Shown: positions 40,740 through 43,685 of the stretch, one piece after another
How the letters are laid out: each line of letters begins with the position of its first letter
How positions within the stretch are numbered: position 1 is the first letter of the stretch
Assembly: GCF_026712205.1 (NCBI RefSeq)
Contig: NZ_JAPPUW010000019.1
Coordinates: 1-64,000, forward strand
Direction of reading: 5' to 3'
Length of the DNA stretch: 64,000 nt
Source: Pelomonas aquatica
Lineage (GTDB): Bacteria > Pseudomonadota > Gammaproteobacteria > Burkholderiales > Burkholderiaceae_C
Made by a program: the position numbers and the translations under genes
The notes under the pieces: model-generated
The model's input: the letters and a program-made list of their open reading frames with translations, nothing else
The model's database searches: none
What the model was told of the DNA's origin: nothing

Positions 40740-41554
<815 letters not shown>

Positions 41555-41561
41555 TGGGCAA

Positions 41562-41800
41562 CCTCCTGCTTGTTGACATCGACGAGGAGGTGGACCGAGG
41601 GTAGGAACTGACTTCCGTGCCCCCATGGTGACTGCCTGCGGCGCTGGCCTCGCGAAGGCCCGTATGAGACCTGCAGCCCATGGGGTGCCGGAAGGCCGTG
41701 ACGGGCCACTGGATGTAGCGCCAAGCCTTCACCGCCGGAGCGCCAATCAATGAGCTCCCCGCCGGGCCTTCCGACACGGGCAGTCATACCGCAACTCCAA
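41562..41800 (+). ncRNA. Candidate IS110 bridge RNA region
   Basis: This noncoding left end of the IS110 element folds into three clear stems. The first is CCTCCT/AGGAGG (41562-41567 with 41585-41590). The second is CCCCATGG/CCATGGGG (41621-41628 with 41678-41685), enclosing a GGCCT-CGCGA-AGGCC hairpin. The third is CGGAAGGCC/GGCCTTCCG (41689-41697 with 41765-41773). One 5' stem followed by two large internal-loop stems is the layout described for IS110/IS621 bridge RNAs, with a target loop and then a donor loop. An AAGGAG ribosome binding site for the transposase follows at about 41800. The exact RNA ends are not visible. Confidence 0.5.
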
Positions 41801-41811
41801 GGAGTCTGTCT

Positions 41812-43029
41812 ATGAGTACTCAAGTCTTTTGCGGATTGGACTGGGCCACGCAAACGCATGCGGTGTGCATCATCGACACCGCCGGCCAGGTCCTGGAACG
41901 CTTCGAGGTCAGCCACGACCACGATGGCCTGGCTGCGCTGGCACACCGCCTTGCCCGCTACGGCGCGAACTTGCGCATCGCCATCGAGCGTCCCTCGGGC
42001 CTGATCGTCGATGCGCTGGTCGAGGCCGCTCATCAGGTCTTTGCGATCCATCCCAATGCCGTCAAGGCCAGCCGTCCGCGTTACCGCAGTCACGGCGCCA
42101 AGAGCGACGCCTCGGATGCTTATCTGCTTGCCGATCTGCTGCGCACCGATGGACATCGCTGGTCCGCGCTGTCCCCACAGTCGGACTCCATCCGCGCTCT
42201 GCGTGCCTTGGTGCGCGCTCGCGATGATCTGGTGGCCACTCGCATCGCTCTGGCCAATCAATTGCACTCCACACTCGACGCCTTCTGGCCTGGCGGCGCC
42301 CGCATCTTTGCAGCCGTGGACTCGCCCATCGGCTTGGCGTTCCTCAAACGCTATCCATCGCCAGCTTCGGCCGCCGGCCTGAACGAATCTCGCCTGCAGC
42401 GCTTCTGTCGTGCCCAGCACTACAGCGGCCGCCGCAGCCCTGCCGAACTCCTCGGGCGACTGCAGGCCGCCGCGCGCGGCATGGCCCCTGCATTGACGGC
42501 CCAGGCCATGGCCGACGTGGTGCTCTCGCTGGTCGACGTCTTGACACCCTTGGTCGAACAGATCGCCGCTTTGACTCATCGCATCGAGCGTTTCATCGAA
42601 TCGCTTCCCGACGGACAAATCATCATGTCCTTCCCTCGGGCCGGACACATCTGCGCCGCTCAGATCCTGGCCGAACTGGGTGATGTCCGTGAGCGATTCC
42701 CCAGCGATGACCGACTCGCCGCCGAGGCTGGCGTCGTGCCTGTCACCTATCAATCGGGCAAGACCCGCTGCGTGAGCTTTCGCTGGGCCTGCAATCATCG
42801 GCTGCGCAAAGCCATCACCTGCATGGCCGACAACTCGCGCCACACCAATCTCTGGGCTCGCGGCTTGTACGCAGCAGCTCGACAACGAGGCTGCGATCAT
42901 CCCCATGCCATCCGTATCCTTGCCCGGGCCTGGTTGCGCGTGCTCTGGCGCGCCTGGACCGATCGCAAGACTTACGACGCCAGCCTTCATCTGTCCGCCC
43001 TCAAAGCCACTTCTTCTGGCGGGGGTTGA
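41812..43029 (+). CDS. IS110 family transposase
   Basis: A 405-residue recombinase. The N-terminal RuvC-like DEDD domain has GLDWA (Asp10), IERPSG (Glu59) and KSDASDAY (Asp99 and Asp102). The C-terminal Tnp domain has FPRAGHICAAQILAELGD, AAEAGVVPVTYQSGKTRCVS with the candidate catalytic serine near residue 315, and RKAITCMADNSRH. All catalytic positions are intact, so the element may be active. It would act with the bridge RNA encoded just upstream. Confidence 0.93.
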   Translation: MSTQVFCGLDWATQTHAVCIIDTAGQVLERFEVSHDHDGLAALAHRLARYGANLRIAIERPSGLIVDALVEAAHQVFAIHPNAVKASRPRYRSHGAKSDASDAYLLADLLRTDGHRWSALSPQSDSIRALRALVRARDDLVATRIALANQLHSTLDAFWPGGARIFAAVDSPIGLAFLKRYPSPASAAGLNESRLQRFCRAQHYSGRRSPAELLGRLQAAARGMAPALTAQAMADVVLSLVDVLTPLVEQIAALTHRIERFIESLPDGQIIMSFPRAGHICAAQILAELGDVRERFPSDDRLAAEAGVVPVTYQSGKTRCVSFRWACNHRLRKAITCMADNSRHTNLWARGLYAAARQRGCDHPHAIRILARAWLRVLWRAWTDRKTYDASLHLSALKATSSGGG

Positions 43030-43040
43030 CACTGGATGTC

Positions 43041-43685
43041 TCATTCGTGGTCCAGCAGCTCGCGCAGGTCGTGCGCAAAGCCTTCGAGGTCGGCCTCGCT
43101 GGCCGCGACGAGCTTGCCGAAGACGTTGTAGGCCAGCACGGCAGGGATCGCCACTGCCAGGCCGGCGGCCGTCATGATCAGCGCCTCGCCGACCGGGCCG
43201 GAGATCTTCTCGATCGTGATGTTGCCGGCCGCCGAGATGCCGACCAGCGCGTGGTAGATGCCCCAGACGGTGCCGAACAGGCCGACGAAGGGCGCCGTCG
43301 CGCCGATGGAGGCCAGCAGCACCTGGCCGAACTGCAGCCTCGCGAGCACCGCGTGCAGCGCGTCGCGCAGGCGGCGGGTCAGGCGGGACTCGCGCCGGCC
43401 GGCGGCCGCCAGCGTCGCGGCCTGCGTCTCGGCCGTCGCGGCGTCGAGCAGCGGCAGCAGCAGCGCCTCGGTGTCGAAGCTCTGCAGCGCGCCGCGGCCC
43501 TCGGCCACGCCGGCCGCAGACCAGAAGGCCGGCACCGCGCGGACCAGGCCGCGGCGGGCGCGGCGCAGCAGCCAGGTTTTCCACAGGATCAGCGCCCAGG
43601 CGCTGACCGACATGGCTAGCAGCAGCAGCGCCACGGCGCGGCCGACCAGGTCGCTCTGGGCCCAGAAGTCCGCGAAGCCACCCAT
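43041..43685 (-). CDS. exbB: MotA/TolQ/ExbB proton channel family protein
   Basis: A 214-residue inner-membrane protein with three helices. The family signature is present: SIGATAPFVGLFGTVWGIYH and GPVGEALIMTAAGLAVAIPAVLAYN. It would use the proton gradient to energise a TonB-type or Tol-type partner. A small exbD/tolR gene is almost always the next gene; here the reading direction runs straight into the IS110 element and no exbD is seen. The upstream gene is dapB, 2 bases away. Confidence 0.88.
   Translation of the reverse strand: MGGFADFWAQSDLVGRAVALLLLAMSVSAWALILWKTWLLRRARRGLVRAVPAFWSAAGVAEGRGALQSFDTEALLLPLLDAATAETQAATLAAAGRRESRLTRRLRDALHAVLARLQFGQVLLASIGATAPFVGLFGTVWGIYHALVGISAAGNITIEKISGPVGEALIMTAAGLAVAIPAVLAYNVFGKLVAASEADLEGFAHDLRELLDHE

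What the first reader, a model, noticed from the sequence alone, without database searches (positions are those of the whole stretch)
41562..41800. Candidate bridge RNA with two guide-type internal-loop stems
The noncoding left end folds into a 5' stem and two large stems with internal hairpins or loops. This order is described for IS110-family bridge RNAs that specify target and donor DNA. The flanks here give a natural target to read the guides against.
Basis: partly seen in the sequence, partly recalled or inferred. Interest (0 to 1): 0.65.

Follow-up and report, generated by a model that had tools for sequence, protein, structure and literature searches.

The report
Bridge RNA of an IS110 element
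A jumping DNA element carries a guide RNA that steers it to places where one bacterial gene ends and the next begins, and the whole element keeps an open reading frame running the other way, which may let it sit inside operons while doing little harm.

Summary
The interval holds a genuine bridge RNA (about 41608-41787, +) of an IS110-group insertion sequence (41550-43039; DEDD transposase 41812-43029). A covariance model built on 10 relatives finds it once in the window, finds 13 of 13 held-out relatives and none of 20 other IS110-type loci. Stems are kept by compensating changes. An unbiased scan ranks all four guides first of 446 windows, in the IS621 order and strand pattern. Corrections: the proposed 5' stem (about 41562-41593) is not conserved and overlaps a putative promoter; instead the RNA's 5' and 3' ends pair. 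The two flanks come from different insertion sites (livG|livF, tolQ|exbD). The RNA is a new member of a known kind. Less expected: the guides read G(C/T)ATGAGCGCC, often a gene stop/start junction. In 17 of 18 elements the whole element is one antisense reading frame in fixed register with both junctions, and left-end indels keep that frame. IS900's hed is a known precedent. I infer a translational pass-through that limits polarity in operons; this is not shown.

The parts
41550..43039 (+). IS110-group insertion sequence, 1490 bp counting one copy of the core
   Evidence: Ends from 7 left and 7 right junctions in the same genome and relatives
41550..41551 (+). Left core CT, within the shared CTCAT 41550-41554
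   Evidence: Junction comparison
43040..43041 (+). Right core CT, within the shared CTCAT 43040-43044
   Evidence: Junction comparison
41608..41787 (+). Bridge RNA, extent of covariance model R1 (transcript ends not measured)
   Evidence: 200.6 bits, the only match in the window and in the assembled genome; the window copy is one of the 10 sequences the model was built from
41610..41619 (+). Closing helix P1, 5' strand
   Evidence: 4 of 10 pairs with compensating changes
41775..41785 (+). Closing helix P1, 3' strand
41621..41685 (+). Target-binding stem-loop
   Evidence: 6 of 12 stem pairs and 2 of 4 hairpin pairs with compensating changes
41637..41645 (+). Left target guide (same sense as top strand, ends in core CT)
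   Evidence: Best of 446 scanned windows; cognate beats permuted, 1 of 300 as high
41661..41668 (+). Right target guide, reverse complement CTCATACG
   Evidence: Best of 446; 0 of 300
41689..41773 (+). Donor-binding stem-loop
   Evidence: 2 of 8 and 2 of 5 stem pairs with compensating changes
41708..41716 (+). Left donor guide, identical to 43031-43039 at the right end
   Evidence: Best of 446; 0 of 300; 9 of 9 identical in this element
41748..41754 (+). Right donor guide, pairs with CTCATTG at the left end
   Evidence: Best of 446; 0 of 300; all 7 positions paired (G-U allowed) in 9 of 9 elements
41573..41602 (+). Putative promoter: TTGACA, 18-nt spacer, GAGGGT
   Evidence: TTGAC, 18 nt, then a hexamer with A at position 2 and T at position 6 in 6 of 9 proteobacterial elements; the two Variovorax elements have TTGACG without such a hexamer at 16-18 nt, L034 has no TTGAC in its left end. 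The strict consensus scan found nothing. Inference.
41812..43029 (+). DEDD recombinase, 405 aa; D10, E59, D99, D102 and S315 assigned by motif
   Evidence: motif positions; PDB ISCro4 transposase 9t56 E=8.5e-6
41551..43044 (-). Full-length antisense reading frame (IS900 hed-like), 497 codons, ATG at right junction to TGA at left junction
   Evidence: no Pfam match
41561..41567 (-). Shine-Dalgarno match AGGAGGT, 6 nt before the start codon at the left junction
   Evidence: no chance control was run

Best explanation
An IS110-group bridge RNA made from the left end. Its first loop base-pairs with the target on both strands around a CT core (LTG TGCGGCG-CT, RTG CGTATGAG). Its second loop base-pairs with the joined ends of the excised circle (LDG ACTGGATGT, RDG CAATGAG). 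The DEDD/serine recombinase then exchanges strands at CT. Shown here: structure, guides, and co-variation of guides with target and ends. Inferred from IS621: transcription, RNA binding, circle formation, strand exchange. The target it reads is G(C/T)ATGAGCGCC; in this genome 6 of 7 right junctions are the stop codon of a long open frame, and the insertion keeps that stop codon and the ATG on the other side. Where flanking genes are clear, the transposase points against them.
For: Transposase domains; 7 left and 7 right junctions share CTCAT; compensating changes; unbiased guide scan over nine elements; permutation test over 17 elements, 0 of 5000 for each of four guides; the model built on 10 sequences hits 13 of 13 held-out elements at 44.8 to 83.6 bits and 0 of 20 other IS110-type loci; corresponding empty sites livG|livF and tolQ|exbD in congeners.
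Against: No expression or binding data. One of the five pairing measures, further pair types, does not exceed shuffles (28 against 26.7, 173 of 500), and the structure tested there was derived from the same alignment. Left-target pairing is only moderate: 2 to 6 of 8 identical among the 7 copies in this genome, 2 at L008 and 4 at L009. The strict promoter scan found none. No Rfam family matches above its cut-off. Guides of actinobacterial elements were picked by eye, and the left donor guide fits poorly in two Mycobacterium elements with the register used. L057 was left out of the guide test.
Confidence: 0.95

Rival explanations
1. The structured left end is a 5' leader or attenuator that regulates the transposase, not a guide RNA.
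For: It lies directly upstream of the transposase start and could be co-transcribed; strong structure.
Against: A leader has no reason to match target flanks and element ends; all four loops do, and they change with them.
Confidence: 0.02
2. The ends are DNA-level recognition sites whose repeats only mimic guides; the RNA fold is a by-product.
For: The donor guides are near copies of the ends, so short repeats alone would give matches.
Against: Compensating changes in stems outside the repeats, the RTG matching host DNA outside the element, and the same RNA model upstream of distant transposases.
Confidence: 0.02
3. For the antisense frame: it is a by-product of high G+C, where frames in register with a coding strand are often open.
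For: Other IS110-type transposases of the same bacterial family also lack TTA/CTA/TCA codons: 4 seen against about 46 expected in 12 of the 13 control loci read (the thirteenth, L084, 10 against 8.8). One of 4 control elements is open throughout. Chance of an open left end is 0.09-0.39 per element.
Against: Element length is 2 mod 3 in 18 of 18 elements (11 different lengths); left ends have 0 stops in this frame against 18 to 60 in each of the other five; gaps among 8 left ends are multiples of 3, apart from a +1/-1 pair in one; in 17 of 18 the frame ends at or one codon before the junction stop.
Confidence: 0.12
4. The antisense frame encodes a functional protein (hed).
For: IS900 has an antisense ORF spanning the element, named hed, of unknown function (PMC8141618 passage).
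Against: In the left end, synonymous and nonsynonymous changes are about the same in this frame as in other frames; no Pfam match.
Confidence: 0.2

Closest known systems
IS621 bridge RNA and recombinase (IS110 group), PMC11208160 (three sections and passages read) and PMC11208158 (three sections and passages read)
   Same: Left-end RNA (177 nt in IS621, about 180 nt modelled here), target loop then donor loop, guides in order bottom/top/bottom/top, CT core, DEDD plus serine recombinase
   Different: Here the 5' and 3' ends of the RNA pair into a closing helix, where IS621 is described with a separate 5' stem-loop; target is often a gene stop/start junction; the candidate promoter lies inside the left end
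IS900 of Mycobacterium avium subsp. paratuberculosis with its hed ORF (PMC8141618, passages; Doran 1997 seen only as a citation)
   Same: Targets translation start signals (by the title of Doran 1997); antisense ORF spans the whole element and lacks its own start
   Different: IS900 target motif is CATGNNNNNNTCTCCTT; here the guides read GRC-ATGAG-CGCC-type sites and the element brings a Shine-Dalgarno match for the downstream gene. IS900 itself was not compared here
IS1111-group seekRNA elements (PMC11187229, abstract and passages)
   Same: DEDD recombinase with an RNA guide
   Different: IS1111 elements have the RNA usually downstream, subterminal inverted repeats and reversed guide order; here the RNA is upstream and the order is that of IS110
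ISCro4 transposase, PDB 9t56
   Same: Only solved structure found by sequence (E=8.5e-6 for the whole sequence)
   Different: Distant: two weak stretches (56-152 and 269-395), neither passing the cut-off on its own

Membership tests
IS110-group element with bridge RNA | RuvC-like DEDD domain PF01548 and Tnp domain PF02371 with conserved serine | tested here: met
   D10, E59, D99, D102, S315 assigned by motif
IS110-group element with bridge RNA | Long noncoding left end, short right end | tested here: met
   262 and 10 nt
IS110-group element with bridge RNA | Structured RNA with target and donor internal loops, conserved by covariation | tested here: met
IS110-group element with bridge RNA | Guides complementary to target and donor around a core dinucleotide | tested here: met
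   CT here; GT inferred in two Mycobacterium relatives
IS110-group element with bridge RNA | Separate 5' stem-loop before the two guide stems (IS621) | tested here: not met
The feature describes IS621; structures in the family are reported as diverse
IS110-group element with bridge RNA | Promoter rebuilt across the joined ends | tested here: inconclusive
   TTGAC sits 13-14 nt before the right core in 17 of 17 elements run (18 have both ends; L051 not run), but no good -10 follows
IS110-group element with bridge RNA | RNA expressed and bound by the recombinase; circular intermediate | not testable with these tools
   No expression data
IS1111 group | RNA in the right end and subterminal inverted repeats | tested here: not met
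   Right end is 10 nt, so it cannot hold the RNA; inverted repeats were not searched for
IS900-type hed organisation | Antisense ORF spanning the element, start supplied at the junction | tested here: met

The most novel reading that the evidence does not exclude
A clade of IS110 elements spanning Proteobacteria and Actinomycetota has programmed its bridge RNA to gene stop/start overlaps and made itself translationally transparent. The element, bridge RNA gene included, is one antisense reading frame that starts where the upstream gene stops and stops where the downstream gene starts, and in the proteobacterial members it adds a Shine-Dalgarno for that gene. Selection keeps the frame, not the amino acids. 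Ribosomes passing through would prevent polarity and make insertion into operons nearly harmless, so a guide RNA evolves under a reading-frame constraint on its opposite strand.
Probability: 0.5. Interest if true: 0.8.

Novelty: new variant of a known kind. Interest (0 to 1): 0.55.

Why it matters
It adds an independently supported bridge RNA with natural reprogramming visible across relatives (targets CTCATRC, CTCACTTG, CTCACAGG, CTCATCG follow their guides), useful for finding active bridge recombinases. If the frame reading holds, it shows how an RNA-guided element lowers its cost to the host, suggests a reason for the hed ORF of IS900, whose function is given as unknown, and makes a testable claim about translation through insertion sequences.

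Tried and rejected
Single-sequence folding gave a different minimum-energy fold and was set aside for the alignment. Rfam gave one chance hit below its cut-off on the other strand. A scan of viral contigs for close relatives found none; samples of 369 genomes of the class and 398 of the phylum, at strict cut-offs, added none besides the own genome. The codon-avoidance argument for the antisense frame (1 forbidden codon against 85.2 expected over 18 elements) was rejected as specific evidence, because control IS110-type transposases show the same deficit (that script ended in an error after 13 loci, and a few of its ORF choices are doubtful). An idea that the target motif alone marks gene starts was weak: of 18 unoccupied GGCGCTCATRC sites, 3 have more than 200 open codons before the TGA, against 6 of 7 used sites. 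Pfam found nothing for the antisense product. Rows dropped before end-based counts: Mesorhizobium L045-L047 (no left end found); L061 (left end split from the transposase by another element); L060 (broken transposase, length 1 mod 3, 9 stops in the antisense frame); L054 and L055 (ends not determined); L039 (partial element). Repeat copies of one element (L035; L040-L042) were not counted as distinct. No structure prediction was run.

Full report
The element. The window carries an IS110-group insertion sequence. A 405-aa transposase at 41812-43029 (+) matches PF01548 (9.6e-38) and PF02371 (9.8e-16). The same genome holds seven left junctions and seven right junctions, all but the window's own pair at contig ends, so about seven copies collapsed by the assembly. 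All seven left junctions read ..CTCAT|TGGGC and all seven right junctions read ACTGGATGT|CTCAT... This fixes the core (CT within CTCAT), a 262-nt left end and a 10-nt right end. Rfam has no match above its cut-off.

The RNA. The consensus fold has a closing helix between the 5' and 3' ends, a target-type stem-loop and a donor-type stem-loop. In that structure 94.3% of cells pair, against 37-43% when partners are slid. There are 16 pairs and 30 cells with both sides changed, against shuffled means of 6.7 and 9.4, and 0 of 500 shuffles reach either; further pair types do not exceed shuffles (28 against 26.7, 173 of 500). The structure was derived from the same alignment, which favours it over slid versions. 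A covariance model from these ten (E-values rough) matches the window once at 200.6 bits; the window copy is a training sequence. It matches 13 of 13 held-out loci with transposases of this kind (12 actinobacterial, 1 Mesorhizobium; 44.8-83.6 bits, E 3e-7 or better) and 0 of 20 IS110-type loci of other kinds. Those 20 were taken from the 29 control loci, and some are cut by contig ends, so their silence counts for a little less. The assembled genome has one match; the other copies are cut by contig ends. In the Rhodococcus locus L061 the model lands on the far side of an IS3-family transposase gene from the IS110 transposase.

The guides. For nine elements with both ends I scored every alignment window against the left target, right target, left donor and right donor, in both orientations (446 windows each, G-U allowed). 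The best window was, in order along the RNA, 41637-41645 (left target, same sense as top strand), 41661-41668 (right target, complementary to top strand), 41708-41716 (left donor) and 41748-41754 (right donor). Each beat permuted pairings: 1, 0, 0 and 0 of 300 as high. This is the order and strand pattern reported for IS621 (PMC11208160, sections read). Over 17 elements the cognate paired fractions were 0.675, 0.878, 0.837 and 0.866, against permuted 0.537, 0.717, 0.636 and 0.748, 0 of 5000 each; for the nine proteobacterial elements alone 20, 0, 3 and 1 of 5000. Within six Streptomyces/Embleya elements only the two target guides vary, and they still follow their targets (87 and 86 of 5000); the donor guides do not vary and give no signal. 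Natural reprogramming is visible: RTG CAAGTGAG with target CTCACTTG (L037), CCTGTGAG with CTCACAGG (L032), ACGATGAG with CTCATCG (L056, L059). Weak points: left-target identity is 2 to 6 of 8 over the seven copies here; the actinobacterial guides were chosen by eye; of 18 elements with both ends, L057 was not in the guide test.

The 5' stem, taken as the first hairpin (41562-41593), contains TTGACA (41573-41578). Relatives do not share it (consensus -3.0 kcal/mol over five elements), and four of the nine elements compared have a left end 96-141 nt longer, carrying a long palindrome. TTGAC, an 18-nt spacer and a hexamer with A at position 2 and T at position 6 occur in 6 of 9 proteobacterial elements; the two Variovorax elements have TTGACG without such a hexamer, and L034 has none. 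The strict promoter scan found nothing, so the promoter is an inference. The two flanks do not form one site. In congeners the livG end was found at 8 of 9 livF loci read, each time with TGA overlapping the next ATG, and L102 has the corresponding ATGAGCGCC site; tolQ is followed by exbD in 9 of 9 loci read (each search had one further congener match whose DNA was not held). In this genome the missing partners lie at other contig ends next to IS ends: livG at L005, exbD at L002. The livF-IS-tolQ arrangement is therefore recombination between copies or an assembly join.

Where it inserts. In this genome 6 of 7 right junctions are the TGA stop of a long open frame (260 to over 500 codons; L006 has 74), named by my reading of the translations as TadB, LivG, TolQ, a PfkB-type kinase, a sugar permease and a cupin-like protein (only the window's TolQ-like and LivF-like proteins were run against Pfam). 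The left junction is the ATG of livF and of a TadC-like protein in two copies; in four (C32, C25, C7, C21) it opens a repeat that precedes the next gene; in C1 it opens an unidentified frame of over 500 codons. Among 20 copies in relatives, 12 have at least 100 open codons before the right junction stop and 9 have an open frame of at least 100 codons from the left junction start. So the gene junction is common, not universal: L037, L032, L043, L044, L048 and L049 have neither. In Streptomyces plasmids the annotated left neighbour starts exactly at the junction in L050, L051, L056 and L059, and in L051 and L059 the right neighbour ends exactly there. In Mesorhizobium L060 the broken copy sits between sctT and an sctU-type gene.

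The antisense frame. In 17 of 18 distinct elements (transposase identity 100 to 43%) the frame that starts with ATG/GTG at the right junction runs without a stop to the left junction, ending at the junction stop (9) or one codon before it (8). The exception, L057, has one internal stop. Element length is 2 mod 3 in 18 of 18, over 11 different lengths. In the left ends, which do not encode transposase, this frame has 0 stops while the other five have 29, 36, 43, 18 and 60. Among eight left ends of the window's clade all gaps are multiples of three (3 to 132 nt) except a +1/-1 pair in L036 that restores the frame. Amino-acid conservation is not seen: in that set synonymous/nonsynonymous codon changes are 210/942 in this frame and 212/914 and 232/928 in the others; in the Streptomyces set 37/259 against 40/259 and 76/228. 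Nine of nine proteobacterial elements carry a 4-7-nt Shine-Dalgarno match 5-7 nt before the left-junction start codon (AGGAGGT in the window); in most of the nine actinobacterial ones the match is short or distant. No chance control was run for this.

Against this: openness alone is cheap at high G+C. Control transposases show the same lack of TTA/CTA/TCA, one of four control elements is fully open, and per-element chance for the left end is 0.09-0.39. The elements are related, so counts are not independent, and no control on indels in other IS110 clades was run. What carries the argument is the fixed register and the frame-keeping indels. IS900's hed, an antisense ORF spanning that element without its own start, is the precedent (PMC8141618, passages), with target motif CATGNNNNNNTCTCCTT. 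Six searches (lists of 47, 89 and 90 were capped at 15 of 40, 15 of 38 and 20 of 58) showed, in the titles and abstract beginnings listed, no description of this organisation beyond IS900; a find in the main text of the IS621 paper gave no 'start codon', 'antisense' or 'hed'. Most subscription papers are not in that library.

How it likely works. Shown: structure, guides, targets, register. Inferred: the circle forms, the RNA pairs target and donor, the recombinase exchanges strands at CT as in IS621, and ribosomes finishing the upstream gene continue through the antisense frame and reach the downstream gene, limiting polarity. A corollary, also inferred, is that transcription of the host operon makes RNA complementary to the bridge RNA.

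Noticed in passing
window 41551-43044 (-) and 17 other elements: Whole element is one antisense reading frame in fixed register with both junctions (one relative, L057, has an internal stop); left-end indels keep the frame
   Followed up: yes
window 41550 and 43040: Left flank (livF) and right flank (tolQ) belong to two different insertion sites; either recombination between copies or an assembly join
   Followed up: partly
L032, L033, L037, L038 left ends: Four relatives carry a near-perfect palindrome of about 65 nt (GGGTTG..CAACCC) between the terminus and the bridge RNA; absent from the window element
   Followed up: partly
window 41500-41549 and many places in the genome: Dispersed repeats (GCGCCG.. 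after ATGAG) that abut the left junction at five of seven copies
   Followed up: partly
L048, L049: Mycobacterium plasmid relatives appear to use GT instead of CT as core, with guides changed to match
   Followed up: partly
L061: Rhodococcus copy in which an IS3-family transposase gene lies between the bridge RNA and the IS110 transposase
   Followed up: no
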